Below are positions 8,785-34,130 of a DNA stretch of 39,350 nucleotides, piece by piece. A program made the position numbers and the translations under genes. The stretch comes from Cytobacillus oceanisediminis 2691 (GTDB lineage Bacteria > Bacillota > Bacilli > Bacillales > Cytobacillaceae): positions 1-39,350 of the forward strand of contig NZ_VEEP01000015.1 of NCBI RefSeq assembly GCF_007678455.1, given 5' to 3'. Numbering within the stretch: position 1 is the stretch's first letter; each line of letters opens with the position of its first letter. The notes under the pieces are model-generated. The model was not told where the DNA came from, ran no database searches, and saw only the letters and a list, made by a program, of their open reading frames with translations.

Positions 8785-9153
8785 ATGCATGAAATGTCAC
8801 TTATGTCAGAAATCATTGAAATCGTTTCAGAGGACGCTGCTGCAAGAGGTTTTAAAAAGCTGGATCAGATTGATGTCATCGTGGGGGATTTATCCAATGT
8901 CCTGCCCGATGCCCTTGAGCTGGCGTTTCTCTTTTTTCAGAGACAGGAAGGCAGTTTGATTGACGAAGATAGCAGGCTGCATATTATTCGGGAAGAAGCA
9001 AAAGCCTGGTGCCCGGAATGCCGGTGTAATTTTCAGCCTGATTACAGGATTGCGCTTTGTCCGGAGTGTGGCATTCCCGGCAGCCTGCTGGTGAGCGGTG
9101 AAACGTTCAGGGTTGAATCTTATGAAGGAAGGGATGAAGGCGATGAAAATTGA
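8785..9153 (+). CDS. hypA: Hydrogenase nickel-insertion protein HypA
   Basis: A 122-residue HypA that delivers nickel to the hydrogenase large-subunit precursor together with HypB. It begins with MHEMSL, where His2 is the nickel ligand, and carries the zinc site CPEC (C76, C79) and CPEC (C92, C95). The frame opens earlier, but the invariant MHE start fixes the ATG at 8785; the ribosome binding site is weak. It is the first gene of the operon, and its end overlaps hypB. Confidence 0.95.
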   Translation: MHEMSLMSEIIEIVSEDAAARGFKKLDQIDVIVGDLSNVLPDALELAFLFFQRQEGSLIDEDSRLHIIREEAKAWCPECRCNFQPDYRIALCPECGIPGSLLVSGETFRVESYEGRDEGDEN

Positions 9154-9802
9154 GCTTGGCGCAGATGTGTTAAAGGATAACAATCTAGCTGCCGTTTATA
9201 ATAGAAAACTATTTAAAGATCACAAAACACTTGTCATCAATCTCATGAGTTCACCTGGTGCCGGTAAAACGACCCTGCTGGAAGAAACAATCAAGTCATT
9301 GCGCCACGATTTTACTGTGGCCGTAATTGAAGGAGATCTGGCCACGGACCGTGATGCGGAGCGCTTGCGGTCTTTAGGGGTAAAAACAATTCAGATTAAC
9401 ACAGTGGGAGGCTGCCATCTTGATGCGAGGATGATTGCCAAAACACTTCCAGAATTTGACCTGGAAGACATTGATATTCTCTTCATCGAAAATATAGGGA
9501 ACCTGGTTTGTCCTTCAGGCTATGATTTAGGACAAGATTATAAAGTCGTCGTATTAAGCGTACCGGAAGGCAATGATAAAATCCCGAAGTATCCTGTGAT
9601 GTTCAGGCGTACGGATCTGACGATTATCAATAAGGTCGATCTCCTTCCATATGTCTCATTCAGTGTTGAGGAAGCTGAAAGAGACTTAGAGACTATTAAT
9701 CCTGCGGCAGAGCTGATGGTTTTGTCCGCGAAGACTGGTGAAGGTCTTGAAGGCTGGGTCAACTGGATCAAGGAAGCGTACAGGCAATGTACGGAGCAGT
9801 GA
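9143..9802 (+). CDS. hypB: Hydrogenase nickel-incorporation GTPase HypB
   Basis: A 219-residue SIMIBI-class GTPase that drives nickel transfer in [NiFe]-hydrogenase maturation. The P-loop SSPGAGKTT lies at residues 36-44, Switch I is GDLATDRDAERL, the dimer-interface metal site has C91-H92 (GGCHLD), and the guanine motif is NKVD. There is no N-terminal His-rich nickel-storage stretch. In-frame ATGs exist at 9122, 9134 and 9143; 9143 is best placed after GGAAGGG. It overlaps hypA by 11 bases and hypF by 16. Confidence 0.95.
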   Translation: MKIELGADVLKDNNLAAVYNRKLFKDHKTLVINLMSSPGAGKTTLLEETIKSLRHDFTVAVIEGDLATDRDAERLRSLGVKTIQINTVGGCHLDARMIAKTLPEFDLEDIDILFIENIGNLVCPSGYDLGQDYKVVVLSVPEGNDKIPKYPVMFRRTDLTIINKVDLLPYVSFSVEEAERDLETINPAAELMVLSAKTGEGLEGWVNWIKEAYRQCTEQ

Positions 9803-12123
9803 GCATCAGGGTGACGGGAAGGGTGCAGGGAGTTGGGTTTCGGCCATTCGTTTATTCCCTTGCGAAAAAATTTCAATTGACGGGAACCGTCCAGAATAAT
9901 CTTGACCATGTCATGTTGATTCTGGAAGGAAACGAAGATGAGCTAGAAAAAGCCGTAGCAGAACTAAAAAATTCACCGCCACCTCTGGCAAAGATCGATA
10001 GAATTACCGCAACTCCAATTCCCCCTGTCTATTTTCAAGAATTTACGATCATCCCAAGCAAAAAAATAGATTCCTGTTCCTTACCATGGATTTCTGCGGA
10101 TGCGGCGATTTGTGAGGATTGCCTGCGAGAAATGAAAGATCCATCCAATCGGCGATATCAATACCCATTCATCAACTGCACACAATGCGGCCCGCGCTAC
10201 ACAATCATCCAGGCCCTGCCTTATGATCGGCCATATACAACGATGAGTGAATTTACAATGTGTGAACAGTGCCATGAAGAATATGAAAACCCGTTGAACC
10301 GTCGGCATCATGCCCAGCCGATATGCTGTTCTGCATGTGGCCCAAGCATTGCTTTATTTTATCAAAAAGGGAAGTTGGCGGCACAGGATGAGAAGGCGCT
10401 TCTTGAGACAGGTGCACTATTAAGGAGGGGCCATATTGTCGGGATAAAAGGCATCGGCGGTTTTCATCTCGCATGTGATGCTTTTCAGGAGAGGGCAATC
10501 TTGGAAGTGAGAAAAAGAAAGAATCGTCCCTACCGTCCACTGGCCATTATGGCAAGGAATCTGGATGTAGTAAAAAAGCATTGTTATTTATCAAAAGAAG
10601 AAGAGGCAATGCTCACCAGTACAGTCATGCCTATCGTGGTGTTGCGGAAAAGAAAGGAAAGCACCCTTCCGGAAGTGCTGTCACCAGGATTGTCCACGAT
10701 TGGAATCATGCTGCCGTATACTCCCTTGCATCACAGGATATTTGAAACAAGCGGACTCGAAAGTATGGTCATGACCAGTGCCAACCCTTCAGGACTGCCG
10801 ATTCCTTACAGAGAAGAAACTATCGACGGCTATTTATATGATTTTCTATTAACCCACAACCGGGACATTCACCTTCCGATTGATGATTCTGTCGTACAGT
10901 TTGACGGTGAGCATATGCTCTTTCACAGGAGGGCACGAGGATTTGTGCCGGACCCTTTTCACACTCAATCAGAAGTTGATGGAATTCTTGCTTTTGGCGG
11001 AAATCAAAAAAATACCTTTGCGCTTGGGAAGGAAAAGGACATCGTGGTCAGTTCCTATATTGGCGATTTGGACAACGAAGAAATGATTCGTTTTTTTAAG
11101 GACCAGATCTATCACTATCAAAAATGGCTGGATGTTGAAGTGAAGCATATAGCAATTGATCAGCATCCACTGTACGCATCAACGGAACTGGCAAAAGAAT
11201 ATGATTGCAACATCATACCCATTCAGCATCACCATGCCCATCATGTTTCCTGTATGGAGGATAACGGCATCGAGGAACCTTGTTTCGGGATCATCCTTGA
11301 TGGAACCGGCTATGGCGATGACGGGAATATCTGGGGATTTGAGTTTCTCTACGGCGATGCCGATTCCTTTGAACGTCTTGGCCATCTGGAATATACCCCG
11401 CTTCCAGGCGGGGAGAAAGCCGTGAAAGAAACATGGAGAAATGCAGTCGGAATGCTCTATCAATACTGGCAAGAAGACGGAATAGAGATAGCAATGAAGC
11501 TATTCCCTGACAAAGCCAATGAAATCAACATTCTAAAAAAGATGATCTTGAATCAAATTCACACCCCGATGGCAGGTACTTGCGGAAGAATATTTGATGC
11601 AGTCAGTGCGATTCTGGGAACTTGTTTAACTTCCTCATATGAAGGGGAAGCGGCAATCAGATTATCAGATTACATGATGAAAGAGATGGACCATCCAGCT
11701 GACACTTATCCATTCCATCTAAAAACAAACCAGGCAAATCAACTTCAACTAGACCTTTCCCCAATGCTCTCTCAAATCATCCAGGATCAATCCAACAGCG
11801 TCAGTACGGCCAAAATCATTCACACTTTTCATTCAACTATTGTTTCCTGCTGTGTGGAGATGATTGAAAGATTAGCAGAAAGAAACCCGCACCTGAACAG
11901 GACGGTCATGTTGTCAGGGGGCTCATTCCAGAATTTATTTTTAACGAAAGAAATCAAAGCAAGGCTCGTGGAAAAAGGGTTTGCCGTTAAGACGCATAAA
12001 AACGTTCCCTGTCATGATGGCGGCTTATCATTAGGGCAAATCATCATAGCTTCTCATGCTATTAAAAGTAAGGTGGTGGATCACTGTGTGCCTGGGAGTA
12101 CCCGCAAAGGTGATGGAGATTGA
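9787..12123 (+). CDS. hypF: Carbamoyltransferase HypF
   Basis: A 778-residue HypF that makes carbamoyl-adenylate from carbamoyl phosphate and loads it on HypE as precursor of the CN ligands. Domains in order: acylphosphatase (residues ~4-90, GRVQGVGFRP), two zinc fingers with four CxxC pairs (from C109, C131, C159, C181), a YrdC-like domain (~200-385), and a Kae1-like carbamoyltransferase domain with HHHAHHVSCM and a C-terminal SGGSFQNLFL. Full length and intact. It starts inside hypB and its end contains the start of hypC. Confidence 0.97.
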   Translation: MYGAVSIRVTGRVQGVGFRPFVYSLAKKFQLTGTVQNNLDHVMLILEGNEDELEKAVAELKNSPPPLAKIDRITATPIPPVYFQEFTIIPSKKIDSCSLPWISADAAICEDCLREMKDPSNRRYQYPFINCTQCGPRYTIIQALPYDRPYTTMSEFTMCEQCHEEYENPLNRRHHAQPICCSACGPSIALFYQKGKLAAQDEKALLETGALLRRGHIVGIKGIGGFHLACDAFQERAILEVRKRKNRPYRPLAIMARNLDVVKKHCYLSKEEEAMLTSTVMPIVVLRKRKESTLPEVLSPGLSTIGIMLPYTPLHHRIFETSGLESMVMTSANPSGLPIPYREETIDGYLYDFLLTHNRDIHLPIDDSVVQFDGEHMLFHRRARGFVPDPFHTQSEVDGILAFGGNQKNTFALGKEKDIVVSSYIGDLDNEEMIRFFKDQIYHYQKWLDVEVKHIAIDQHPLYASTELAKEYDCNIIPIQHHHAHHVSCMEDNGIEEPCFGIILDGTGYGDDGNIWGFEFLYGDADSFERLGHLEYTPLPGGEKAVKETWRNAVGMLYQYWQEDGIEIAMKLFPDKANEINILKKMILNQIHTPMAGTCGRIFDAVSAILGTCLTSSYEGEAAIRLSDYMMKEMDHPADTYPFHLKTNQANQLQLDLSPMLSQIIQDQSNSVSTAKIIHTFHSTIVSCCVEMIERLAERNPHLNRTVMLSGGSFQNLFLTKEIKARLVEKGFAVKTHKNVPCHDGGLSLGQIIIASHAIKSKVVDHCVPGSTRKGDGD

Positions 12124-12319
12124 GGAGCAGAAAGCTCTGGTGGATGTGATGGGGTCAAGGATGCATGTCGGGATCCTGTTTGTCCCAGAAGTGAAAAAAG
12201 GCGACTATGTATTGCTTCATGCCGGACAGGCGATGACCGTAGTAGACGAGACCTTTGCACGCGAAAGCATCGAGGAATGGAGGAATATTATAAATGGAAA
12301 GTTTGGAGACGCTCTCTGA
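12086..12319 (+). CDS. hypC: Hydrogenase assembly chaperone HypC
   Basis: A 77-residue HypC that shuttles the Fe(CN)2CO moiety between HypD and the large-subunit precursor. The essential Cys2 is present in the start MCLGVPAKV, which sets the start at GTG 12086 with AAGGTGG nine bases upstream. The start lies inside the last 38 bases of hypF, and the 3' end overlaps hypD by 26 bases, so translation is coupled. Confidence 0.95.
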   Translation: MCLGVPAKVMEIEEQKALVDVMGSRMHVGILFVPEVKKGDYVLLHAGQAMTVVDETFARESIEEWRNIINGKFGDAL

Positions 12320-13400
12320 TCCGGCCCTGGCCCGTCAGTCACTGGAGGCCGTGATTGAACTGGCTGGAGAGTTTAAAAAGAAATTTGGAAGAGTGCCAGT
12401 ATTGATGGAAGTATGCGGCTCACATACAATGGCTTTTGCCAAATCGGGGTTAAAAACCAGGTTGAAGGATCATGTCAGGCTGATTGCCGGTCCCGGATGT
12501 CCGGTGTGTGTGACAGACCAGAAATCAATTGATGCAATGATTCAATTGGCTGAAGGTTCCAACAGGATCCTGTGTACGTTTGGCGATATGATGCGCGTGC
12601 CTGGTTCCCGGGTGAGCCTGATGAAGTCAAAAACGGACGGCAAGGATATCCGGGTGATCTATTCACCATTGGACAGTGTGAAGATCGCCGAGGAAAATCC
12701 CAATAAGGAAGTCATTCTCCTCGGGATTGGCTTTGAGACTACGATCCCTATTTTGACTCTTGCCATTTGCGAAGCAGAAAGAAAAGAGTTGAAGAATTAT
12801 AGTGTATGGATGACAACGAAATTGGTGGAACCAGTTATGAGAGCTCTTCTGGATTCAGGAGAGGTCAAGCTGGATGGCTTTATTTTACCAGGACATGTTT
12901 CAGTCGTCTTAGGAAAAAAGAGCTTTGATTTTTTAGTGGAGGATTACCAGGTCTCTGGCGTAATAACCGGATTCGAACCCGTGCAGCTTTTAAGCGGCAT
13001 CTATAAATTGCTGGAGCTCCTTCTCGAGAATAAGCAGGATGTATTAAATGACTATCCTTCTGTTGTAAAAGATGAGGGCAATCTTCACGCACAAAAATTG
13101 CTTAAGCAATATCTGCAGCTCCATGATGAAGATTGGCGTGGAATGGGCACGATTCCAGAAAGCGGTCTTGTCCTTAAGAACGAGTACGCACAATTTGATG
13201 CAAAAAAGCGGTATGAAGTATCTGTAGGAGAGCCGAGGAAAACAAAATGCCGCTGCGGTGAAATCATCAGGGGATTAATCAATCCCGAAAGCTGTGTTTT
13301 GTTTAATAAAGGGTGTACACCAGCGCATCCGATTGGGCCTTGTATGGTTTCAACGGAAGGCACTTGTGCGGCACATTATCAATATATGAGAGGGGAATAG
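12294..13400 (+). CDS. hypD: Hydrogenase formation protein HypD
   Basis: A 368-residue iron-sulfur scaffold on which Fe(CN)2CO is assembled with HypC and HypE. Signature motifs are MEVCGSHTMAFA (C41), GPGCPVC (C69, C72), FGDMMRVPGS, and the C-terminal Cys cluster CRCGEIIRG...GCTPAHPIGPCMVS that holds the [4Fe-4S] cluster. ATG start overlapping the hypC end; hypE starts two bases after its stop. Confidence 0.97.
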   Translation: MESLETLSDPALARQSLEAVIELAGEFKKKFGRVPVLMEVCGSHTMAFAKSGLKTRLKDHVRLIAGPGCPVCVTDQKSIDAMIQLAEGSNRILCTFGDMMRVPGSRVSLMKSKTDGKDIRVIYSPLDSVKIAEENPNKEVILLGIGFETTIPILTLAICEAERKELKNYSVWMTTKLVEPVMRALLDSGEVKLDGFILPGHVSVVLGKKSFDFLVEDYQVSGVITGFEPVQLLSGIYKLLELLLENKQDVLNDYPSVVKDEGNLHAQKLLKQYLQLHDEDWRGMGTIPESGLVLKNEYAQFDAKKRYEVSVGEPRKTKCRCGEIIRGLINPESCVLFNKGCTPAHPIGPCMVSTEGTCAAHYQYMRGE

Positions 13401-13402
13401 GC

Positions 13403-14407
13403 TTGGTCCAGAAAATTGGTTTAGCGCATGGGGAGGGCGGTGAACTTACCCACCTGCTGATTCAGGATGTGTTTGTTAAGTCATTTGGCCATGGAGTCCT
13501 GACGAAACTGGATTCCGCTATTCTGCCTGGGATGATCAATAATATGGCTGTGACGACCGATAGCTTTGTCGTGAATCCGATCTTTTTCCCTGGAGGCAAT
13601 ATTGGAAAGCTGGCGATAACAGGGACCGTAAATGATTTAGCTGTTTGCGGAGCAATCCCGCGGTTTATTACTGCAGGCTTCATTCTTGAAGAAGGGTTTC
13701 CGGTAAAGGACCTGAAGAAGATTGTCCAGAGTATGGCAGAAGAAGCGGAACGGGCGGGTGTCCATATTATTGCCGGTGATACAAAGGTTGTCGAAAAGGG
13801 AAGTGCGGATGGTCTTTTCATCAATACAACCGGCATTGGGGAACTGCAGGAGATGCACCGTCCAAATCCGGAAGAAATGAAAAAAGGGGACGCGGTAATC
13901 GTAAGCGGTACAATAGGGGATCATGGCGTCTCAATTCTTGCCGCCCGAAATGAACTGGGACTGATGACAGATGTCACGAGTGATTGTTCATCATTGAATC
14001 ATCTTATTCAAAAACTCATAGATGAAATACGAGGGGTTCGAATCATGCGGGATCCCACAAGGGGCGGACTGGCCACTACCCTTGTCGAGATATGTGAAGA
14101 CTTTCAGGTGACGATCGAGCTTGAAGAAGGCTCGATTCCAATACGGAAGGATGTCCAGGGAGCATGTGATATTTTAGGATTCGATCCACTTTATTTAGCC
14201 AATGAGGGGAAAATTGTGCTGATTGTAGAATCGAGTTTGGCAGAGAATGCGATGGAAATAATGAAACAAAACGAATTCGGCAGGGATGCTGAAGTGATTG
14301 GCCAGGTATCATCGCTGGAGTCCGGTAAACTGTTGTTGAGGACTCCTTTTGGTACAACACGCAGGCTGCAGCGTCTCTCTGGCATGCTCCTGCCAAGAAT
14401 ATGTTAA
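13403..14407 (+). CDS. hypE: Carbamoyl-dehydratase HypE
   Basis: A 334-residue PurM/ThiL-like ATPase that dehydrates the HypF-delivered carbamoyl group to a thiocyanate on its C-terminal cysteine. It starts MVQKIGLAHGEGG and ends PRIC, the invariant HypE C terminus (C334). Metal/nucleotide motifs include GDTKVV and RDPTRGGLATTL. The frame opens inside hypD, but AGGGGA seven bases before TTG 13403 and the family start support this rare start codon. Confidence 0.95.
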   Translation: MVQKIGLAHGEGGELTHLLIQDVFVKSFGHGVLTKLDSAILPGMINNMAVTTDSFVVNPIFFPGGNIGKLAITGTVNDLAVCGAIPRFITAGFILEEGFPVKDLKKIVQSMAEEAERAGVHIIAGDTKVVEKGSADGLFINTTGIGELQEMHRPNPEEMKKGDAVIVSGTIGDHGVSILAARNELGLMTDVTSDCSSLNHLIQKLIDEIRGVRIMRDPTRGGLATTLVEICEDFQVTIELEEGSIPIRKDVQGACDILGFDPLYLANEGKIVLIVESSLAENAMEIMKQNEFGRDAEVIGQVSSLESGKLLLRTPFGTTRRLQRLSGMLLPRIC

Positions 14408-14463
14408 TTATTCCTGGGCTACCGCATAGGATAGGAGGAAAGCTGCCTTAAGGAGAGGAAGTT

Positions 14464-14985
14464 ATGAACAACATCCAGTTAATCAGATTACAGCTGAATC
14501 ACCTTATCACCCAGGCACGGCAAGACTTGTATTCACTTTCGAGAACGAGTGATTACTATAAAAACCAGCAAATTCTGCAGCGCATATGGGACTCGCTGTC
14601 TTCTATTCATTTTTTAAGTGAACTCCTTGCTAATCAGGCAAGTAAAAACTCTGGGCCAATACAGAATTCGATTCCGCAGCCTGCTACTACAAACCAGCCG
14701 CAAATACCGCCCATCACTCCCCTGCCAAATCCAAATAACACAACAAACAATCAACGATCTTTTACGATACAAGAGTTAGCAGCATTCGATGGCAAAAACG
14801 GAATGCCTGCTTATGTTGCAGTGAATGGCATCGTCTATGATGTGACGAACAATCGTGCCTGGGCGGCAGCGACCCATTTCGGTCTGGTTTCGGGAAGGGA
14901 ATATTCCCGGGAATTTGCCTCCTGTCATGCCGGACAGCAATCCATCCTTGCGATGCTGCCAGTGGTGGGGAGGTTAATGCAATGA
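14464..14985 (+). CDS. Cytochrome-b5-like haem-binding protein of the hydrogenase operon
   Basis: A 173-residue protein. Residues 1-60 are predicted helical, residues 61-98 a Pro/Asn/Thr-rich linker, and residues 99-173 a cytochrome-b5-like haem/steroid-binding domain of the bacterial type (FTIQELAAFDGKNGMPAYVA, VNGIVYDVT). H138 (THFG) and H155 (CHAG) are the likely axial haem ligands. There is no signal peptide or membrane helix, so it should be cytoplasmic. Its stop overlaps the small-subunit start (ATGA), so the two are translationally coupled. Its place suggests it carries electrons to or from the hydrogenase, in place of the usual membrane cytochrome b. Function is inference. Confidence 0.8.
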   Translation: MNNIQLIRLQLNHLITQARQDLYSLSRTSDYYKNQQILQRIWDSLSSIHFLSELLANQASKNSGPIQNSIPQPATTNQPQIPPITPLPNPNNTTNNQRSFTIQELAAFDGKNGMPAYVAVNGIVYDVTNNRAWAAATHFGLVSGREYSREFASCHAGQQSILAMLPVVGRLMQ

Positions 14986-15887
14986 GCCAGTTTATTTTAC
15001 CGCCAGAACCGTTAACGAATGAGGCGATTGCTGAGAGACTTACAAATACAGCTATCAAACAACTTGATCGGGGTTTGATCAAGAAAAGAAACTTAGTATA
15101 CCTGGAATTGAACGGATGCTCAGGGAATATTATTTCGTTATTGAATGGGCAAAATCCTGATTTCGAATATGCGTTAAATTCAATGGTCGATTTGCGGTAC
15201 AGCAACAGCCTTATGGCAGCTGAAGGAGAACAGGCAATAGCAAAACTGATGGAGGTAATGAATGATGATTTCATATTGGCTGTTGAGGGAGCAGTCGCTC
15301 TAAAAAATAACGGTCTTTACAATATTATCGGCAGCTGGCAAGGAAAGCCGCTTACGGGTCTTGAGGCTGCCCGGATGCTTGGAGACAAAGCGGAGAGCAT
15401 CCTCGCTGTTGGTGCATGCGCGACACATGGCGGTGTTTCTGCTGCCAGGCCGAATCCATCTGAGTCAGTGGGCCTGCAAACTGTTCTTCCAGAAAAGAAG
15501 ATGATTAAACTGCCAGGGTGCCCTGTCCATCCAGACTGGTTTTTGGGAACACTTGCCCATATGCTCCTTTATGGAGAACCAGAAACGGATAATCTTGGCC
15601 GCCCGCTGATGTTTTACAGCACCCTCATCCATGATCGCTGCCCGAGGAGGCCGTTTTTTGACAGGGGGATATTTGCAGAGAAATTGGGAGATAAAACATG
15701 TCTTTTCAAGCTTGGATGCCGCGGGCCGGTGACAAGGATTGATTGCCCGACCAGGCAATGGAACGGACATGTGAACTGGCCGATAGGGGACGATACCCCA
15801 TGCATCGGCTGTGCGCAATTTGGTTTTCCAGATGCGATGGCCCCGTTTATCAGCTATGACACGACAAGGGTGGTGAAGGATGAGTAA
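14982..15887 (+). CDS. hupS: Uptake [NiFe] hydrogenase small subunit (group 2a-like)
   Basis: A 301-residue iron-sulfur subunit that passes electrons from the NiFe site. There is no Tat signal and no C-terminal membrane anchor, so it is cytoplasmic. Likely proximal-cluster ligands are C46, C146 and C180, with N49 (CSGN) where most small subunits have the second Cys of CxxC. Distal ligands are H217, C220, C240 and C246. The medial site has C255, C274 and C277 with Pro267 in the fourth position, as in [3Fe-4S] types. As I recall, cyanobacterial group 2a HupS shares the CSGN motif. It overlaps the large-subunit gene by 8 bases. Confidence 0.92.
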   Translation: MSQFILPPEPLTNEAIAERLTNTAIKQLDRGLIKKRNLVYLELNGCSGNIISLLNGQNPDFEYALNSMVDLRYSNSLMAAEGEQAIAKLMEVMNDDFILAVEGAVALKNNGLYNIIGSWQGKPLTGLEAARMLGDKAESILAVGACATHGGVSAARPNPSESVGLQTVLPEKKMIKLPGCPVHPDWFLGTLAHMLLYGEPETDNLGRPLMFYSTLIHDRCPRRPFFDRGIFAEKLGDKTCLFKLGCRGPVTRIDCPTRQWNGHVNWPIGDDTPCIGCAQFGFPDAMAPFISYDTTRVVKDE

Positions 15888-17286
15888 GCGAATTGTCATT
15901 AACCCACTAACACGGATCAGCGGCTTTATGGAAATTGATGTAACGGTAGAAAACAATCAGGTGGTCGAGGCAAAAACAAAAGGCAATTTATTCAGAGGGT
16001 TTGAGCAAATGCTGATCGGGAGAAGTCCATTTGATTCCGTTTATTTTACCCAGCGGATCTGCGGGATTTGCTCGGCTGCACATTCGATGGCTTCTTCTTT
16101 GGCGTTGGAGGATGCCCTGAAGATTGAGCCGATGGAACAGGGGAAGTACTTAAGGGATATTATTCATTGCTGTGAATTTCTGCAAAATCATATACGGCAC
16201 TTTTATCAATATACAGTACCCGATTTTGTGAAAATAGAACAAAATTTGCTGTTCCAGGCCGATCATGATGACTTCCGGCTGCCAACTGAAATCAATGACC
16301 GGATATCCAAGCATTACTTTGAGTCTCTCACAATCAGCAGGCTTGGCCACCAGATGCTCGCAGTCCTCGGAGGAAAAGCCCCACATAACCATGGGGTTTT
16401 CATTGGCGGGATCACAACCCAGGCAACCGCAGAAAAGGTGGTTCACCTGGATTCGATTTTACAGAAGATATCTGCGTTCATTGATGAAAAAATGATTCCG
16501 GATGTATATGATATCGCCCGATATTATCAAGAATACTACCAGTTGGGCAGCGGATACGGGAATTTGCTGTCATATGGCTCTTTTAATAGCTATAAAGAGC
16601 TCGGGACTTTATATGTTGATCCACTTGTATTGACTGGGGAAGGTATGCAGGCTTTTGACGAAAGTAAGATCCTGGAGAAAATTGATTACTCTTACTTTAC
16701 ATCAACAGAACAAACGTATTCACCTGGTGAAGTCGTCCCGGAACCTGATATGGATAAGAAGAATGCGTATTCCTGGGTAAAAGCGCCAAGATATAACGGG
16801 CTTCCATTTGAGGTGGGGCCGCTGGCAAGACTGATACTAAGCGGGAATTATGATAATGACATCTCCGCTATGGACCGGACCATTGCCAGGGCGCTTGAAA
16901 CGAAAAAAATCGCTGAGATCATGAAGTTATTGCTCCAGCAGATCATCCCGGGAGTGGATGTGCAGAAAAAATATGAACTTCCAGAATCAGCTTCTGGAAG
17001 GGGATTGGTCGATACAACAAGAGGAGCCCTGGGACACTGGCTTAAGATAAAAGATAAGAAGATCTCATTCTATCAAATCATCACTCCTTCAACATGGGAT
17101 TTTTCAACAAGGGATGATAATGGCTACAGAGGGACCGCTGAACAAGCGCTGATCGGGACACCCATCCAGAATCCGGATAAGCCTGCCGAAATCGGAAGAA
17201 TCCTGCGTTCTTTCGATCCATGCATGTCCTGTGCGACTCATGTATACACTCCGGGAAAACAAGTGAAAACAATAAAGGTGTTCTAA
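15880..17286 (+). CDS. hupL: Uptake [NiFe] hydrogenase large subunit (group 2a-like)
   Basis: A 468-residue catalytic subunit holding the NiFe(CN)2CO centre that splits H2. Nickel ligands are C61 and C64 (RICGICSAAH) near the N terminus and C448 and C451 (DPCMSCATH) near the C terminus. A 14-residue tail follows H454 and should be removed by the endopeptidase encoded next door, so the enzyme is of the processed type. Length is that of compact soluble (group 2) large subunits rather than the ~550-600 residues of many membrane-bound ones. Confidence 0.95.
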   Translation: MSKRIVINPLTRISGFMEIDVTVENNQVVEAKTKGNLFRGFEQMLIGRSPFDSVYFTQRICGICSAAHSMASSLALEDALKIEPMEQGKYLRDIIHCCEFLQNHIRHFYQYTVPDFVKIEQNLLFQADHDDFRLPTEINDRISKHYFESLTISRLGHQMLAVLGGKAPHNHGVFIGGITTQATAEKVVHLDSILQKISAFIDEKMIPDVYDIARYYQEYYQLGSGYGNLLSYGSFNSYKELGTLYVDPLVLTGEGMQAFDESKILEKIDYSYFTSTEQTYSPGEVVPEPDMDKKNAYSWVKAPRYNGLPFEVGPLARLILSGNYDNDISAMDRTIARALETKKIAEIMKLLLQQIIPGVDVQKKYELPESASGRGLVDTTRGALGHWLKIKDKKISFYQIITPSTWDFSTRDDNGYRGTAEQALIGTPIQNPDKPAEIGRILRSFDPCMSCATHVYTPGKQVKTIKVF

Positions 17287-17741
17287 TGGAGAAGGTCATC
17301 GTTTTAGGCATTGGGAATATGCTGATGATGGATGATGGGATCGGTATTTACTTGGTAGAGGAGCTATCCAGGACGAATTGTGACCCGGATGTTTTGTTTT
17401 TGATTGGTGAATCGGATATTGATTATTGCCTGGAGCAAATAATGGGCGCTCCAATAGTGATTATTATTGATGCTGCCGTTTCAGGGAAGACACCAGGCAG
17501 TCTTACGGTTTATGAGCTTGCTGATTTGCATGAACACTGCGAGTTGGCTTTTTCCCCGCATGATTTCCACCTGTTTAATCTATTATATGGGCAAAAAGAA
17601 TCCATCAGGGGATACCTCTTGGGCGTGGAGCCTGATGAAATCAGGTTTCATATCGGATTAAGCAAAACCTTACAAGATCAATGGGAAAGAATATTGGAGG
17701 ATGTAACACAAACTATAGACGAATTGATAGGAAAGAATTGA
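17286..17741 (+). CDS. hupD: Hydrogenase maturation endopeptidase (HyaD/HupD family)
   Basis: A 151-residue protease that removes the C-terminal tail of the large subunit after nickel insertion. The M52-family N terminus GIGNMLMMDDGIG is clear, with D17 at the usual nickel-sensing acidic position, then IIIDAAVSG (Asp) and SPHDFHL (His). The frame extends upstream into hupL, but the ATG at 17286 overlaps the hupL stop as TAATG, with AAAGGTG just upstream. It is the last gene of the operon. Confidence 0.94.
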   Translation: MEKVIVLGIGNMLMMDDGIGIYLVEELSRTNCDPDVLFLIGESDIDYCLEQIMGAPIVIIIDAAVSGKTPGSLTVYELADLHEHCELAFSPHDFHLFNLLYGQKESIRGYLLGVEPDEIRFHIGLSKTLQDQWERILEDVTQTIDELIGKN

Positions 17742-19836: not shown

Positions 19837-19864
19837 AAACAAAAAAGCACCCAATGGATGCTCT
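19837..19864 (-). terminator. Terminator of the repeat-protein gene cluster (minus strand)
   Basis: Read on the minus strand, AGCATCC pairs with GGGTGCT around ATT and is followed by TTTTTTG. It lies about 65 bases past the stop of the last repeat gene. Confidence 0.72.
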
Positions 19865-19927
19865 TGAATATGAATGGAGCGGGATGGAAGAAACAAAATG
19901 CCGCAGAGGGATAATGACTCTATAATC

Positions 19928-20524
19928 TCAATAAGTCGGAGCATCAGCATCTTTTTCGGAAGATTTACTATGGTCCTGAGAAATTTGACTATCAACCGGA
20001 TCATCAGATGAGTTGCTGTTTTCCTGGGAAAGAGAGCTGTCAGTCGCATTATCAATGGCACTGCTGTCATTTTGCGCGAGTGCACTATCCGTAGGAGCAT
20101 TTGCTGAACTGCTTCCGCCCTGTGCAATGCTGCTGTTAGTAGGATCATCTGCAGCGTTGCTGTGGTCCTGAGCAACAGCGCTATTAACCGGGTCATCGAC
20201 TGCGTTACTGTGTTTTACAGCAACCGCAGAATGGTCTACATGGCCGATGGAGATTTGTTCAGGGTTTTGATGCTGACTTAAATTAAGATGGAGATTTAGC
20301 TGAAGAGGATAGTTCTGTAAGATGTTCTGCAGCTTGCTGTTAAAATCCCGACCTGAATGCGTTTCTATGAGAGTCGAAAGGTTCTTGTTGATTTCCTTCT
20401 TCAGTCTTGGCTCCAGATATTCAGCCATCATCTTTTTGAATTCTTTCCTGATTTTCTTCGTTAATTCACCAGACAGCTCTTCCAGGATTTCTTTCTTCAT
20501 TTGTTCCTTAGTCCATTTATCCAT
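19928..20524 (-). CDS. Five-repeat protein A: helical N-terminal domain plus 16-residue repeats
   Basis: A 198-residue protein. Residues 1-55 are a highly charged amphipathic helical region, 56-88 a leucine/asparagine-rich linker, 89-104 a half-repeat cap (QISIGHVDHSAVAVK), 105-184 five exact 16-residue repeats (example HSNAADDPTNSSIAQG), and 185-198 an acidic tail. No Cys, no signal peptide, no membrane helix. An in-frame GTG at 20533 overlaps the AGAGGTG site, so the start is ATG 20524. It is the last of three paralogues and the most divergent: the tail cap differs and it alone has the helical domain. Function unknown; a self-assembling beta-structured surface or spore protein is an inference. 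Confidence 0.78.
   Translation of the reverse strand: MDKWTKEQMKKEILEELSGELTKKIRKEFKKMMAEYLEPRLKKEINKNLSTLIETHSGRDFNSKLQNILQNYPLQLNLHLNLSQHQNPEQISIGHVDHSAVAVKHSNAVDDPVNSAVAQDHSNAADDPTNSSIAQGGSSSANAPTDSALAQNDSSAIDNATDSSLSQENSNSSDDPVDSQISQDHSKSSEKDADAPTY
19973..20212 (-). repeat. Five tandem 16-residue (48-bp) coding repeats, gene A
   Basis: Five uninterrupted 48-base units encode xSNAxDDPxxSxxAQx. Ser at positions 2 and 11 and Gln at 15 are invariant in all five units; position 14 is Ala or Ser. Confidence 0.9.
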
Positions 20525-20569
20525 AAAATTCACCTCTTTTTCTAATACTTCTCAGCGGCTGGAAATGAC

Positions 20570-20612
20570 ACAATCGATCCCCACTGCACATGGGCTGTGG
20601 GGGATCGATTGT
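20570..20612. repeat. Long inverted repeat between five-repeat genes B and A
   Basis: ACAATCGATCCCC (20570-20582) is the exact complement of 20600-20612. The stem may extend two more pairs with a one-base bulge, around a loop of about 15 bases. It lies between the stop of gene B and the start of gene A. On the genes' own (minus) strand no T-run follows, so it may be a processing or attenuation hairpin rather than a full terminator; on the plus strand a T-rich tail does follow. Confidence 0.7.
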
Positions 20613-20623
20613 TATTTCTTATT

Positions 20624-20974
20624 TTAAAAAACTTCCGTGGACTTGCTGTCGTCGAGGGCGACAGAGCTGTCGAAAGGATTGTCGGATGCATTGCTGTCGT
20701 CTTGAGCAAGAGCACTATCGAGAGTATTATCCGCAGAATTGCTCTTACCCTGTGCAACTGAAGAATCAACAGGATTTTCAGCTGCATTGCTCTTTCCTTG
20801 AGCAACAGAACTGCTTACCGGGTTATCTGAAGCATTACTGAACCTTTGAGCAACGGCACTTGTATCGGGGTTGTCGGATGCGCTGCTGCCTTTTAATGCA
20901 ACGGCTCCATTTTCAATGTAGCCAATAGCAAATTGCTTGCAGCTTTGGGACTTGTTTTTTTCATCTTTGTACAT
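20624..20974 (-). CDS. Five-repeat protein B: short 16-residue repeat protein
   Basis: A 116-residue protein: a 13-residue basic N terminus with one Cys (C12), a half-repeat cap (QFAIGYIENGAVALK), five 16-residue repeats (residues 29-108, example KSNAAENPVDSSVAQG), and the closing DSKSTEVF. No signal peptide or membrane segment. The ATG at 20974 follows AAAGGAGTGAAT. It starts 37 bases after gene C, so the two are probably co-transcribed. Its repeat 5 and tail are nearly identical to those of gene C, showing duplication of a whole gene. Function unknown. Confidence 0.82.
   Translation of the reverse strand: MYKDEKNKSQSCKQFAIGYIENGAVALKGSSASDNPDTSAVAQRFSNASDNPVSSSVAQGKSNAAENPVDSSVAQGKSNSADNTLDSALAQDDSNASDNPFDSSVALDDSKSTEVF
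20651..20890 (-). repeat. Five tandem 16-residue (48-bp) coding repeats, gene B
   Basis: Five 48-base units encode xS[NS]AxDNPxxS[AS]VAQx, the fifth ending in ALD rather than AQD. The third base of codons varies among units, so they are kept similar at the protein level. Confidence 0.9.
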
Positions 20975-21011
20975 CTAAATTCACTCCTTTTTTTACTAGT
21001 AATGAACCATT

Positions 21012-21458
21012 TTAAAAAATCTCTTTGGCCTTGCTGTCATCCAGTGCAACAGCGCTGTCGAATGGATCGTCAGAAGCGTTGCTGTCATCCTGAGCCAGGG
21101 CACTGTTATCAGTGTCGTTTGCAGAGCTGCTCTTATCCTGGGAAACAGAACTATTCGTTCCGTCATCCAATGAATTGCTTTGGCCCTGTGCAACAGCACT
21201 GTCATCTGGATTGCCAGAAGCATTACTGTAATCCTGTGCAACGGCACTATTGGTTGGGTTATCTGATGCATTACTGTCATCGATGGCAATGGCCCCATTA
21301 GTGATGTAGCCAATCGCGATCTGCTCTGGTTCCTGCTCCTGCTTATACCACTTTTTATCCTCTTTCTTGTCGCATTTGTCTTTCTTTTTGGATTTTTTGC
21401 GGTCTTTTTCGGGATAATCCCACTGTGGCATTGGATACTTCTTGTACTCTCTATACAT
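21012..21458 (-). CDS. Five-repeat protein C: basic N terminus plus 16-residue repeats
   Basis: A 148-residue protein. Residues 1-42 are Tyr/Lys-rich and very basic with one Cys (C29; PEKDRKKSKKKDKCDKKEDK), 43-60 a half-repeat cap (QIAIGYITNGAIAID), 61-140 five 16-residue repeats (DSNASDNPTNSAVAQD), and 141-148 the closing DSKAKEIF. No export signal. An in-frame GTG at 21467 overlaps the ribosome binding site, so ATG 21458 is the start. It is first in the three-gene set; a TATAAT-like sequence lies upstream on the minus strand without a clear -35. The lysine-rich head and Ser/Asn/Gln repeats would fit a spore-surface protein, but this is unproven. Confidence 0.82.
   Translation of the reverse strand: MYREYKKYPMPQWDYPEKDRKKSKKKDKCDKKEDKKWYKQEQEPEQIAIGYITNGAIAIDDSNASDNPTNSAVAQDYSNASGNPDDSAVAQGQSNSLDDGTNSSVSQDKSSSANDTDNSALAQDDSNASDDPFDSAVALDDSKAKEIF
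21039..21278 (-). repeat. Five tandem 16-residue (48-bp) coding repeats, gene C
   Basis: Five 48-base units encode [DYQK]S[NS][AS]... ending SAVAQD or close variants. Units 4 and 5 match units 4 and 5 of gene B better than their own neighbours. Confidence 0.9.
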
Positions 21459-21939
21459 TTCATTCACTCCTTTTTACTAGATTCCTTAGCATTATATTTT
21501 CGTTTCTTTTTTTTGAATGGACAAACAAACTAATTGGTTTTTAAAAATGTAAAATGTACGTTTGTATCAGTAAAGCCCCGATTTTCATTTGCTGCCAGAT
21601 AATAGCAGGCAGGCCGTTTAGTTTTGGAGTAAAGTCAGCAAGTTTTTCGCAGGAATAACTTACAATTACAAACTGATATTCATGTTAATAACTATTCTGG
21701 ATAAATATAACTATTTTCAGGAATGTAATGACCACCAAAACATTGATAAATAAAGCCTTTTTTATAAAATTAATGATAACTGAATTATTAGGTAAAAAGA
21801 CTGAATATTAAGAATCGTCGTTGACTTTATTAAATACCGCTGATAGTATCCTGAACTGACAAGCAAGTTGAAAGGGGAATTGAGATGGCGACTTGAAGAT
21901 TGCTTGATATATTTAAATTTTTGAGGGGGAAATACAAAG
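21459..21939. other. Intergenic region between divergent five-repeat genes and soxB-like gene
   Basis: About 480 AT-rich bases. It must hold the promoter of the repeat genes (minus strand; only a TATAAT at about 21493-21498 is suggestive) and holds the clear soxB-like promoter at 21821. I see no gene, known riboswitch or mobile element in it. Confidence 0.55.
21821..21849 (+). promoter_or_regulatory. SigA-type promoter of the soxB-dsrE pair
   Basis: TTGACT (21821-21826) and TAGTAT (21844-21849) are separated by 17 bases. The leader is about 85 bases before the TTG start. Confidence 0.7.
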
Positions 21940-23766
21940 TTGAAGACTTCCATTTATCGTAAAGTGGCCGCAAGTATTATAACAGTCGCTTTTTTAACCA
22001 CTGGGTATACAGCTTATGCAAACCTGACCGAATTAAAAGAGAATAGACATGCAAATCCTTTGGAGGGGGAAGAGCATATTCAACAGTCGGGCTGGGATGA
22101 AAGCGCTGACAAATCGGTGACACTTATGCAGCTTGGAGACCTTCATGGGCATCTTATACCCAGGAAAAACCTTAATACCGAAAACTTTGAAGGGACTGTG
22201 GGCGGGCTTGCCCGAATTGCAACGGTAATCAAGGAAATTAGAAAAGAATCTTCCCAAAACCTGTTGTTTAACATAGGGGACACACTCCATGGCGGAGCAG
22301 AGGCACTTTATACTGAGGGCAAGGCAATGACAGATATTTTAGATAAATGGCGGATTGATGGGTATGCTTCTGGAAACTGGGATTTTCTTTATGGAACCGA
22401 ACGCTATCTTGATCTTTTCGAGAATGGGCGCTGGGGAGCTGTCGCGGCAAATCTATATTACGAGGGCGAGCCATACGCCGACAAGGCTGGTGAGCGGGTC
22501 CTTCCGCCTTACCGGGTAATCAAGCGGGCTGGTCTTAGTGTGGGAATTGTAGGTTTTACAAGTGAACGCGGACCAACTGTTGGAACAAGCACGACAAAAG
22601 GTTTCCGGTTTACTGGGGAAGGTGAAGAATTGCCTGAAATGATTCATGAATTGCGTGAAAAAGAAAAGGTAGACTTAATCATCATGATTTCTGAGCTCGG
22701 TCTGGCCAAGAATCTTCAGCTGGCAAACCGCTATCCTGGGGTAGACGTTCTTCTGTCAGCGGATATGCATGAAGAGACTCCTAGGCTGATTGAGACAAAG
22801 TCAGGCACCCTTGTTTCCGAGGTGAGCCATGATGGAATAGCTGTCGGGCAGCTTGATCTCCAGGTAGGAGAAGAGGGCATTACAGGCTGGCGCTATGAAT
22901 TACATAAAATCGACGAAAGCATAAAAGAGGATGAAGGCACTTCAAAACTAGTCGAAAAGGAACGAGCCATGTTTGTGAAAGGCAAAGGGTTTCACTCACA
23001 CGAAAATCCAATAAATAAGACAATTTTGTATAAACCTATTGATACAGTTATTGGTGAGGCAAAAAAACCTCTCTATCGAGGGAATTTTTCTGATCATGAA
23101 ATGCCGGGTGTAGTGGAGGGTTCTTCTCATAACTTCCTGGCAGATGTGTTCCGGAAAGAAGCTGGAGCCGACATTGGCACAATCCGGGGTTTTCGTTATG
23201 GGACCCACGTTGCAACTGGCGATATCCGTCTGGAGGATATTTATCACTTTATCCCGGTGGCCCCTTTCATTGCGAAGGGAACGATAACAGGGAGCCAGCT
23301 TCACGACCAGATAGAGAGGAGCCTGAACGGCTCACTAAATCCGGATCCATTCAAATGGACAGGAGGATGGGTCCAGGCATACAGCGGTGTTCGTTATGAA
23401 CTTGATCCATATGCTCCTGCCTTCGGTAAAGCAAGTAATATTGAGATATTTGATCAAAAGAAAAGAATCTGGCAGCCTCTTGATATGGACAAACAGTACA
23501 CTGTTGCCGGGTATTGGTATCCAGGCCGGCCGGATGACATTGGAACTGGACTTAAGATCAATGATAATGCTCAGACAGTAAATGGTCCTGACGGCAATCC
23601 GCTGGACGCGACCGAAGTAGTGGCAAGATACTTATCTAAAAATCAGGCGGATCCTGAATTGGGGCGAGTTAAGCTACTTCATAAGCTGCCTGAACCAGCC
23701 TTTGGAAATAGGGAAATCCAGCCACTGAATGGAGTGCCTGAAAGAGTCGGTACAATTCAAAACTAA
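21940..23766 (+). CDS. soxB: Exported SoxB-like metallophosphoesterase (thiosulfohydrolase homologue)
   Basis: A 608-residue enzyme of the 5'-nucleotidase/SoxB family with an N-terminal signal peptide (cleavage near A27). The dinuclear-metal motifs are D67-x-H69 (GDLHGH), D114 with H117 (GDTLHGG), N146-W-D148 (GNWDF, where 5'-nucleotidases have GNHE and SoxB has a W in the same place), and SADMHEE. The C-terminal domain contains RGFRYGTH and NPDPFKWTGGW, which resemble SoxB more than nucleotidases. SoxB removes sulfate from a SoxY-bound sulfonate. TTG start with GAGGGGG upstream. A DsrE-type gene follows. No SoxYZ, SoxAX or SoxCD is in view. Confidence 0.82.
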   Translation: MKTSIYRKVAASIITVAFLTTGYTAYANLTELKENRHANPLEGEEHIQQSGWDESADKSVTLMQLGDLHGHLIPRKNLNTENFEGTVGGLARIATVIKEIRKESSQNLLFNIGDTLHGGAEALYTEGKAMTDILDKWRIDGYASGNWDFLYGTERYLDLFENGRWGAVAANLYYEGEPYADKAGERVLPPYRVIKRAGLSVGIVGFTSERGPTVGTSTTKGFRFTGEGEELPEMIHELREKEKVDLIIMISELGLAKNLQLANRYPGVDVLLSADMHEETPRLIETKSGTLVSEVSHDGIAVGQLDLQVGEEGITGWRYELHKIDESIKEDEGTSKLVEKERAMFVKGKGFHSHENPINKTILYKPIDTVIGEAKKPLYRGNFSDHEMPGVVEGSSHNFLADVFRKEAGADIGTIRGFRYGTHVATGDIRLEDIYHFIPVAPFIAKGTITGSQLHDQIERSLNGSLNPDPFKWTGGWVQAYSGVRYELDPYAPAFGKASNIEIFDQKKRIWQPLDMDKQYTVAGYWYPGRPDDIGTGLKINDNAQTVNGPDGNPLDATEVVARYLSKNQADPELGRVKLLHKLPEPAFGNREIQPLNGVPERVGTIQN

Positions 23767-23800
23767 GATTCATACCCATTACTAGATAGGAGAGATCAAC

Positions 23801-24277
23801 ATGCGAGAGAAGATAGTCTTTATTGTAATGACAGCATTGCTTTTAACTACAGGCCTTTCCTGGGCTGCAGCCAAAACAGACGGAGAAACGGGACGGCCAA
23901 GTACGACGCCGCAGGGACATTATCAGGTTGTCTGGCAGGTCTCTGATCCTGCTGGAACAAATGAAAGCACTTGGGCTGGAGTTTTGAACAATATTGAAAA
24001 TTCACTTTCTGAAATCGGTGAGGACAAAATGGAGATTGAAGTGGTAGCTTTCGGAGCAGGCATCCATATGCTTAGCAAGGAAAAAAGTTCTCCAGAGCTT
24101 CAAGAGCGTATCCGGAAACTTCAAGAACGAGGCGTGGTATTTGCAGCCTGCGCAAACTCAATGGCGAAAAACGGCTATGTTATGGAAGATATGGTCGAGG
24201 GAGCAATCCAAGTGCCATCAGGAGCAGCAGAAGTGATTCGCAAACAGCGACAGGGCTGGATTTATATGCAGTCTTGA
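23801..24277 (+). CDS. Exported DsrE-family sulfur-carrier-like protein
   Basis: A 158-residue protein with a signal peptide (cleavage near A24, LSWAAA) and a DsrE/YchN-like alpha/beta domain (residues ~40-158: VVWQVSDPAGTNESTWAGVLNNIEN). A conserved Cys lies at C117 in VVFAACANSM, where DsrE-family proteins carry persulfide. Most relatives are cytoplasmic; this one is predicted to be secreted or periplasm-equivalent. It starts 34 bases after the soxB-like gene with AGGAGA upstream, so the two form an operon. A joint role in extracytoplasmic sulfur chemistry is inferred. Confidence 0.8.
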   Translation: MREKIVFIVMTALLLTTGLSWAAAKTDGETGRPSTTPQGHYQVVWQVSDPAGTNESTWAGVLNNIENSLSEIGEDKMEIEVVAFGAGIHMLSKEKSSPELQERIRKLQERGVVFAACANSMAKNGYVMEDMVEGAIQVPSGAAEVIRKQRQGWIYMQS

Positions 24278-24301
24278 TCATTAATAACTTTTTATATTAG
24301 G

Positions 24302-24328
24302 AGGACTCTCATCAATGAGGGTCCTTTT
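24302..24328 (+). terminator. Terminator of the soxB-dsrE pair
   Basis: AGGACTCTCAT and ATGAGGGTCCT pair with a 2-base spacer (one G-T pair), followed by TTTT. Confidence 0.82.
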
Positions 24329-24394
24329 AGTTAAGTGAATTTGTATTGCTTCCGAAAATTATTGCTTATATAATAATAAAGTTTAAATTTACTA

Positions 24395-32339: not shown

Positions 32340-32361
32340 GTGTGCAACTATATAGAATCAA

Positions 32362-32432
32362 CCTTCATATATCCTCGATAATATGGATCGAAAGTATCTA
32401 CCAAATCACCGGAAATGATTTGACTATGAAGG
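32362..32432 (+). ncRNA. Purine (guanine-type) riboswitch aptamer upstream of guaA
   Basis: P1 is an 8-bp helix, CCTTCATA (32362-32369) with TATGAAGG (32425-32432). P2 pairs TCGAT with ATCGA around an AATATGG loop, P3 pairs CAAATCA with TGATTTG around CCGGAAA, and the joining segments TATCTACC and GACTAT fit the purine aptamer core. The specificity base is C (GAC before TATG), so guanine rather than adenine is expected. Confidence 0.92.
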
Positions 32433-32456
32433 CAGGCTTCTTTTTGTTCGTAACGG

Positions 32457-32582: not shown

Positions 32583-34130
32583 ATGAAAAACGAGCTGCAA
32601 GACCAGGAAATGATTATAGTATTAGACTTTGGCAGCCAGTATAACCAGCTGATCACAAGACGGATCAGGGAGTTTGGCGTCTACAGTGAGCTTCATCCGC
32701 ACACGATTACAGCGGCTGAAATCAAGGAAATGAACCCAAAGGGAATCATTTTTTCAGGAGGGCCGAACTCTGTTTATGATGAGGGAGCCTTCCGATGTGA
32801 TGAAGAGATTTTCGAGCTGGGCTTGCCGATTTTGGGCATCTGCTACGGAATGCAGCTTATGACAATGCATTTCGGCGGGAAGGTCGAGAAGGCAAAGAAC
32901 CGTGAATACGGAAAAGCCCTGCTGACTCTCCATAACCAGAACACATTATTCGAAGGGACTCCGGGTGAACAGGTTGTCTGGATGAGCCATGGCGACCTCG
33001 TCACCATGTCACCGCCAGGATTTTCTGTAGATGGAGTCAATCCATCCTGCCCGATTGCAGCAATGAGTGACGAGAGCCGTAAGCTTTACGCGGTCCAATT
33101 CCACCCTGAGGTTCGCCACTCCATGTATGGGAATGACCTGTTGAAGAACTTTGTCTTCAAGGTGTGCGGATGCGAAGGCAACTGGTCGATGGAAAACTTC
33201 ATTGAAATCGAAATGGAGAAAATCCGCCAGCAGGTAGGAGACAAGAAGGTTCTATGCGCATTGAGCGGCGGTGTTGATTCCTCAGTTGTGGCCGTATTGA
33301 TCCATAAGGCGATTGGCGATCAGCTGACATGTATTTTCGTTGATCATGGATTATTGCGCAAAGATGAAGCAGAAGGTGTCATGAAGACTTTTGCTGATGG
33401 CTTCAACATGAACGTTATAAAGGTGGATGCCAAGGATCGTTTCCTCAGTAAGCTCGAGGGTGTATCCGATCCGGAGCAGAAGCGTAAAATCATCGGAAAC
33501 GAGTTCATCTATGTTTTCGATGATGAAGCGGAAAAGCTTAAGGGCATTGAATTCCTGGCACAGGGAACATTGTATACCGATATTATCGAAAGCGGCACTG
33601 CAACGGCACAGACAATCAAGTCCCACCACAATGTCGGCGGGCTGCCTGAGGATATGCAGTTCAGTTTGATCGAGCCATTGAACACATTGTTCAAGGATGA
33701 AGTCCGTGCGCTTGGCACCGAGCTTGGCATTCCTGATGAAATCGTCTGGCGTCAGCCATTCCCTGGACCTGGACTCGGCATTCGTGTTCTTGGGGCCATT
33801 TCAGAAGAAAAATTGGAGATTGTCCGTGAGTCGGACGCCATTCTTCGGGACGAAATCAAGAAGGCGGGCCTTGATCGTGAAATCTGGCAGTATTTCACCG
33901 TCCTTCCGGATATTCGCAGCGTAGGTGTCATGGGGGATGCGAGGACATATGATTACACAATTGGCATCCGTGCAGTAACATCCATTGATGGAATGACGTC
34001 CGATTGGGCAAGGATTCCTTGGGATGTCCTTGAGATAATCTCCACAAGGATCGTCAACGAAGTCGATCACGTCAACCGCGTCGTTTATGATATCACCAGC
34101 AAACCGCCTGCAACTATTGAATGGGAATAA
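32583..34130 (+). CDS. guaA: GMP synthase (glutamine-hydrolysing)
   Basis: A 515-residue enzyme that converts XMP to GMP with glutamine and ATP. The class I amidotransferase domain has the nucleophile C87 (GICYGMQL) and the His-Glu pair in VQFHPEV; the synthetase domain has the PP-loop LSGGVDSSV; the C-terminal dimerisation domain ends [15 protein letters not shown] precedes the ATG. It lies between yebA and pbuG as in B. subtilis. The riboswitch upstream gives feedback by guanine. Confidence 0.98.

What the first reader, a model, noticed from the sequence alone, without database searches (positions are those of the whole stretch)
19928..21458. Three tandem paralogues, each with exactly five 16-residue repeats
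Seen: genes C, B and A carry a half-repeat cap (x[IF][AS]IGxxxxxAxA), five uninterrupted 16-residue units (consensus xSNASDNPxDSAVAQD), and a short tail. All 15 units are 16 residues with no insertions. The alternation of SAVAQ strands with SNASDNP turns is the rhythm of beta-solenoid or amyloid-type repeats, and loosely recalls curlin (N.A...Q) and YadA-head repeats. No signal peptide is present. In a spore-former this could be a self-assembling spore-surface or cytoplasmic filament family. I do not know a described family with this repeat.
Basis: partly seen in the sequence, partly recalled or inferred. Interest (0 to 1): 0.8.

Follow-up and report, generated by a model that had tools for sequence, protein, structure and literature searches.

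The report
Unknown spore-former repeat protein cassette
Three neighbouring genes carry the same 16-amino-acid repeat and belong to an undescribed, rare gene cassette of spore-forming bacteria that probably makes a structural layer or fibre of the spore surface, though this has not been shown by experiment.

Summary
Genes A, B and C (19928-21458, minus strand) each have a cap and five uninterrupted 16-residue units; two serines are invariant in 15 of 15 units. "Exactly five" is not a family rule: outside this genus, relatives have one to three regular units or irregular spacing. They belong to a rare cassette found in 8 genomes, which I group into five independent clusters, one in Bacillus inaquosorum. 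One or two A/B-type genes come first and one C-type gene is last. Purifying selection is strong (dN/dS 0.05-0.11). No credible match was found in Pfam, NCBIfam, PHROGs, PDB sequences, phages or plasmids. Upstream lies a conserved element that fits the recalled SpoIIID (mother-cell sporulation) consensus in 4 of 5 clusters versus 1 of 60 cleaned control upstream regions; 8 of 8 carriers encode SpoIIID. A hairpin precedes the C gene in 4 of 5 (clearly beyond shuffles in 3). Best reading: mother-cell-made spore coat or crust proteins, A/B as bulk subunits, C as a scarcer anchor or nucleator. Expression, location and assembly are inferred. AlphaFold monomers were low-confidence, so solenoid, amyloid and disorder all remain open.

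The parts
21012..21458 (-). gene A: K/D/Y-rich N-terminal tail, cap, five 16-residue units, short tail (148 aa from ATG)
   Evidence: orthologues in G303 and G013; dN/dS 0.09 against G013
20624..20974 (-). gene B: short tail, cap, five 16-residue units (116 aa)
   Evidence: dN/dS 0.11 against G013
19928..20524 (-). gene C: predicted long N-terminal helix (AF2 residues 9-58 of the 201-aa reading, pLDDT about 70), amphipathic strand YPLQLNLHLNLSQHQN, cap, five units (198 aa from ATG)
   Evidence: dN/dS 0.05 against G013
21511..21525 (-). conserved upstream element TTTGTCCATTCAAAA; the reverse complement, with the flanking bases, contains ATGGACAAAC, a full match to the recalled SpoIIID consensus WWRRACARNY
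20570..20612 (-). predicted stable hairpin between B and C
   Evidence: -29.8 kcal/mol, z -3.5; hairpins at the same place in G013, G157/G099, G022 and B. inaquosorum, not clearly in G439
19843..19865 (-). terminator-like stem with T tail downstream of C
   Evidence: 1 found, 2.0 expected in shuffles, so weak

Best explanation
A small cassette, probably an operon, of spore-surface structural proteins. Shown: a family of cap-plus-repeat proteins in conserved gene order, A/B types first and C type last, under purifying selection (measured in one genus), in spore-formers, behind a conserved upstream element. Inferred: the element is a SpoIIID site, so the mother cell makes the proteins during coat formation; the hairpin before the C gene lowers its expression relative to A/B; A and B are bulk subunits whose repeat domains associate side by side or end to end on the spore; C, with its helical segment and amphipathic strand, anchors or nucleates the layer. 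The Lys-rich N-terminal arms and the Gln recurring every 16 residues would suit transglutaminase cross-linking of the kind known in coats.
For: Same gene order in five clusters. Perfect minus-oriented WWRRACARNY at -59 to -81 in 4 of 5 clusters versus 1 of 60 control upstream regions after removing family genes and an out-of-frame ORF that shares gene A's own upstream region. The exact pattern TTTGTCCAWWCAAAA occurs once in each of G000, G439 and G574, always before the cassette. SpoIIID over cut-off in 8 of 8 carriers. Hairpin before the C gene in 4 of 5 clusters. N-terminal segments of the 9 A/B-type proteins examined are 47-72% K/D/E/H/Y/C. dN/dS 0.05-0.11.
Against: No expression, proteomic or localisation data. 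The SpoIIID consensus letters are recalled, and the orientation and distance window were set after seeing the sites; in either orientation anywhere in 150 bases a perfect site is common (0.12-0.28 per promoter by simulation and 3 of 22 window promoters). The f37 pair (G157/G099) lacks a perfect site. Sigma-K-like promoters at 7 of 8 or better occur in 3 of 5 clusters but also in 8 of 61 controls, and the window's own best is 6 of 8. Hairpin z is -2.5 or lower in 3 of 5 clusters only. Assembly is not supported by the models. The family is rare, so it cannot be a core coat component.
Confidence: 0.55

Rival explanations
1. Soluble, disordered hydrophilic protectant proteins (hydrophilin-like) that work in the cytoplasm or spore core without assembling.
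For: Repeats of A, B and C lie on the disordered side of the charge-hydropathy plot; AF2 mean pLDDT 47.6 and pTM 0.11 for B; 8 of 9 A/B-type proteins have pI below 6.
Against: Fifteen units without an indel and a hydrophobic residue at position 13 in 15/15 suggest a structural register; the C type has an amphipathic strand with hydrophobic moment 2.09 at 180 degrees versus 0.27 at 100. AF2 with 11-15 rows says little either way.
Confidence: 0.22
2. Extracellular adhesive or biofilm fibre of vegetative cells, curlin- or TasA-like, exported by an unknown route.
For: Alternating short-strand rhythm; A and B have dS near 1 between window and G013 while nine neighbours have 0.18-0.43, as when alleles of exposed proteins are exchanged.
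Against: No signal-like N-terminus by eye; no secretion partner seen among neighbouring ORFs; no curlin profile match.
Confidence: 0.12
3. Cargo of a mobile element or phage (tail or decoration protein) rather than a host structure.
For: Patchy occurrence and different neighbours in different genera.
Against: No match in 72,556 plasmid or 50,697 phage records for two queries; no relative confirmed in viral contigs with one query; no mobility gene recognised by eye in the ORF lists read, which were not searched by profile for one.
Confidence: 0.06

Closest known systems
CotX/CotV crust proteins (PF07552 Coat_X) and the CotVW filament of B. subtilis (PMC12630357; outline with abstract and section 6 read)
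   Same: Spore-former proteins; CotX of B. inaquosorum has a charged Asp/Lys/Cys-rich N-terminal part; CotV pairs with the helical protein CotW, a loose parallel to the helical segment of C.
   Different: No profile match; Coat_X found in 1 of 6 carriers searched, as separate genes; CotV has an alpha/beta fold without 16-residue repeats.
CotB/CotG repeat coat proteins (PMC7821199, PMC9765600; only search listing and start of abstract seen)
   Same: Repeats in abundant spore coat proteins.
   Different: CotB's are described there as serine-rich repeats phosphorylated by CotH; no relation was detected or tested directly here.
Curlin (CsgA) repeat
   Same: S, N, A and Q recur in a strand-turn-strand rhythm (recalled).
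   Different: Curlin repeats are longer and the protein is secreted (recalled); no Pfam match, no signal-like N-terminus.
YadA-like head repeat of trimeric adhesins
   Same: Rhythm SxAxQ-xx-SxAxD resembles the SxAxG head rhythm (recalled).
   Different: No signal-like N-terminus and no stalk or membrane anchor visible; no Pfam match.

Membership tests
CotX/CotV (Coat_X, PF07552) | match to the Coat_X profile | tested here: not met
   No Coat_X hit for 3 window proteins, 15 family members or 3 proteins with max E 10, though HMMER's filters drop most matches above about 0.1; the profile is found in 1 of 6 carrier genomes, as separate genes
Curlin | curlin repeat profile | tested here: not met
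   not listed; same filter caveat
Curlin | Sec signal peptide | tested here: not met
   charged or polar N-termini by inspection; no signal peptide program was run
YadA-type trimeric autotransporter head | YadA head profile | tested here: not met
   not listed; same filter caveat
YadA-type trimeric autotransporter head | trimeric beta-roll fold | not testable with these tools
   only monomer prediction on offer; models low-confidence
Ena / DUF3992 spore appendage subunits | DUF3992 profile | tested here: not met
   not listed; same filter caveat
Spore coat or crust protein (functional class) | made in the mother cell under sigE/sigK with SpoIIID or GerE | tested here: inconclusive
   SpoIIID-like site in 4 of 5 clusters versus 1 of 60 cleaned controls; sigma-K-like 3 of 5 versus 8 of 61
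Spore coat or crust protein (functional class) | found in the spore surface layer | not testable with these tools
   needs proteomics or microscopy
Spore coat or crust protein (functional class) | carried by spore-formers | tested here: met
   SpoIIID profile over cut-off in 8 of 8 carriers

The most novel reading that the evidence does not exclude
A portable two-part kit for a spore-surface polymer: A/B repeat proteins form a new short-rung beta-roll or fibre with an external ladder of glutamines that transglutaminase locks together, and C is its dedicated nucleator or anchor, dosed down by the hairpin. It would be a fibre system built in the mother-cell cytoplasm without secretion, unrelated to Ena, BclA, CotVW or curli.
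Probability: 0.2. Interest if true: 0.72.

Novelty: new variant of a known kind. Interest (0 to 1): 0.47.

Why it matters
Spore surfaces differ between species and part of that variation is unannotated. This cassette is compact and has a carrier in the B. subtilis group (B. inaquosorum, where it sits between a gene I recall as mutL and genes I recall as ymzD and ymcC), so it gives a ready test of how a minimal self-assembling coat polymer could be built and controlled.

Tried and rejected
AlphaFold2 on B (15-row alignment) and C (11 rows): mean pLDDT 47.6 and 50.1; the residues above 70 lie in C's N-terminal part. No fold search was run because the models are too weak.

Matches inspected and dropped: G459 (an unrelated repeat ORF), G1084 and G1350 (a trigger-factor-like ORF and a cell-wall-binding-type protein by eye). 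They are counted as misses. PDB hits (TLP-1 and TLP-2 at E 4.3 and 5.9; homoserine O-succinyltransferase at E 0.37; none) are taken as chance. Weak Pfam, NCBIfam and PHROGs hits (best 0.0026) each came from a single family member and were dropped. PADLOC was not searched.

Motif scans for sigmaF/G, sigmaE, sigmaB and sigmaA consensus gave no consistent pattern. The search for other genes with the element gave 45 sites in four genomes at up to one mismatch; 30 were read by script for ORF context, and only the three exact ones stand before the cassette. Against the reversed-pattern control the counts were 13 versus 9 in G000, 6 versus 9 in G022, 12 versus 3 in G439 and 14 versus 2 in G574; the last two excesses were not followed up.

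My first control set for the SpoIIID-like site was flawed: the 64 upstream regions (2 hits) included C-type family genes, and one of the 2 hits was an out-of-frame ORF sharing gene A's own upstream region. One search removed the family genes (61 left, 2 hits, the same ORF still among them), so 1 of 60 is the proper count; in either orientation at -100 to -50 it is 3 of 61, that ORF included. The controls are ORFs found by a script, not annotated genes.

The idea that five units are an inherited constraint of all three genes: A and B units correspond by position (diagonal ranks 3 of 120 permutations), C units do not (64 and 34 of 120).

Full report
Observation. The three genes lie on the minus strand, in the order A, B, C of transcription. 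Starts that fit the ribosome-binding sites are ATG 21458 for A and ATG 20524 for C; the longer GTG readings of the ORF list overlap the Shine-Dalgarno-like sequences. Each protein has a cap followed by five 16-residue units without any insertion, 15 units in all. Ser2 and Ser11 are invariant, position 13 is always V, L or I, position 15 is Q in 13 of 15. Period-16 self-identity exceeds the best of 5000 shuffles for each gene. Mean pairwise identity between units is 51% in protein and 60% in DNA, so the duplications look old.

Distribution. Counts include the window's own genome. 3 of 41 relatives; 6 of 397 genomes of the order; 6 of 193 of the family at threshold, 5 after dropping G459, an unrelated repeat ORF; 2 of 398 of the class with the C-type profile; 1 of 44 of the genus of B. 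inaquosorum, that genome itself; 4 of 398 of the phylum at threshold, 2 after dropping two chance hits. The samples overlap. The one scan of named genome contigs matched 103 stretches and confirmed 2, one in a record titled Chryseobacterium sp. ISL-80 and one in Bacillus inaquosorum KCTC 13429. In all, 8 carrier genomes are known to me: G000, G303 (same species), G013, G022, G439, G099, G157, G574. I group them into five independent clusters: G000/G303/G013, G099/G157, G022, G439, G574. No relative was found in plasmids or phages with two queries or confirmed in viral contigs with one.

Anatomy of the family. Each cluster has one or two A/B-type genes and then one C-type gene. The neighbours differ between the five: a hydrogenase operon and transporter gene here, mutL and genes I recall as ymzD/ymcC/pksA in B. 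inaquosorum, other genes elsewhere. C-type proteins share a segment like PLQINIYLNLTQEQNPEQISIG, then a cap with SNA. In the window this segment alternates as a beta strand would (moment 2.09 at 180 degrees, 0.27 at 100). AF2 gives gene C a helix at residues 9-58 with pLDDT about 70; whether other C types share the helix was not modelled. Unit number varies: 2-3 regular units in the first genes of the f37, B. inaquosorum and G439 clusters, 1-2 in the C types counted outside the genus, irregular spacing in G022's first gene. In this genus, A and B units match by position (rank 3 of 120), C's do not (64 and 34 of 120). The N-terminal segments of the 9 A/B-type proteins examined are 47-72% K/D/E/H/Y/C.

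Selection. Between the window and G013, dN/dS is 0.09, 0.11 and 0.05 for A, B, C (Nei-Gojobori in my script). dS is 0.91 and 1.08 for A and B, 0.16 for C, and 0.18-0.43 for nine neighbouring genes. The genes are therefore real and constrained, and the A/B part looks as if it was exchanged for a divergent allele in one lineage.

Regulation. A block before the first gene is conserved across genera whose proteins are 25-53% identical to the window's: TTTGTCCAAACAAAA in G439 and B. inaquosorum, TTTGTCCATTCAAAA in the window, TTGTCCAAACA in G022. The pattern TTTGTCCAWWCAAAA, which I derived from these sites, occurs without mismatch once each in G000, G439 and G574 and not in G022. PMC517825 (passages and section 14 read) gives the consensus as a figure; PMC3789822 (passages read) gives no letters; PMC5025042 (passages read) gives KRTAACARK for C. 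difficile, called partly similar to the B. subtilis one. A perfect site in minus orientation at -100 to -50 is in 4 of 5 clusters (-59, -68, -77, -81) and also in G013 (-59). The control is 1 of 60 after cleaning; first gave 2 of 64, with family genes and an ORF sharing gene A's upstream region among the 64. A binomial figure of 2e-5 is post hoc, because orientation and window were chosen after seeing the sites. In either orientation over 150 bases, chance is 0.12-0.28 per promoter and 3 of 22 window promoters have one. The f37 pair has only 9 of 10. A sigma-K-like AC-N15-17-CATAnnnTA at 7 of 8 or better is in 3 of 5 clusters and 8 of 61 controls; the window's best is 6 of 8. SpoIIID itself is in 8 of 8 carriers.

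Hairpin. Between the last A/B gene and C a stem is predicted in the window (-29.8 kcal/mol, z -3.5), G013 (-37.0, -4.7), G157 (-16.9, -1.5), G099 (-15.9, -2.6), G022 (-24.4, -0.8) and B. inaquosorum (-29.5, -2.5), but not clearly in G439 (-12.6, -0.5) (shuffles simulated from dinucleotide frequencies). The stems differ in sequence between clusters. In B. inaquosorum, G157 and G099 a run of five T follows within a few bases, as in a leaky terminator. I infer lower expression of C than of A/B.

Structure. The models do not decide it. B: mean pLDDT 47.6, pTM 0.11. C: 50.1, pTM 0.23, repeats mostly below 50. The repeats fall on the disordered side of a charge-hydropathy plot. The fixed register and single hydrophobic position argue for some structure; loop-length variation in G022 with a preserved SAxAQxxSxA core is what a strand-turn-strand element would allow. 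The likeness to YadA-head and curlin rhythm is recalled and not backed by any profile match.

Known families. No match shared by members in Pfam, NCBIfam or PHROGs, and no credible PDB sequence match. Coat_X is found in 1 of 6 carriers searched, as separate genes. A full-text search for four repeat strings found 0 papers. In other literature searches I saw only the top rows: 5 of 233, 15 of 6,616, 10 of 10, 8 of 177; none of those rows names this family. The cross-linking idea rests on established knowledge of the coat transglutaminase (PMC6490927, only start of abstract seen).

Verdict. A genuine, rare protein family for which I found no description, most likely a spore-surface structural cassette made in the mother cell. 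The sporulation link is suggestive, the assembly claim is open. The mended control (1 of 60 instead of 2 of 64) did not change my odds.

Noticed in passing
window 20624-21458 versus L048 7248-8109: A and B have dS near 1 against G013 while C and nine neighbours have 0.16-0.43: a local allele replacement or conversion confined to the first two genes.
   Followed up: partly
window 5543-6190: Gene with a CryBP1 (PF07029) match, E 1.7e-9; possibly another spore or parasporal protein.
   Followed up: no
window 8758-17741: NiFe hydrogenase operon with hyp-type genes and, between them, a cytochrome b5-like domain gene (14464-14985).
   Followed up: no
window 21570-24382: The metallophosphoesterase/5'-nucleotidase and DsrE-like genes next to the cassette have no counterpart at the same place in G013.
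   Followed up: no
window 32345-32446 and 34217-34318: Two purine riboswitches (Rfam RF00167), upstream of ORFs 32583-34130 (looks like GMP synthase by eye) and 34450-35781 (looks like a purine permease by eye).
   Followed up: no
L049: Record titled Chryseobacterium sp. ISL-80 carries the cassette; G013, whose contig has the same length, is about 91% identical in DNA to the window over 10 kb, so the name looks wrong.
   Followed up: partly
L044 3539-4525: Unrelated ORF of 328 aa with many near-identical repeats (SPLSQ...IAEK).
   Followed up: no
G439 and G574 genomes: One-mismatch copies of the upstream pattern outnumber the reversed-pattern control (12 versus 3 and 14 versus 2).
   Followed up: partly
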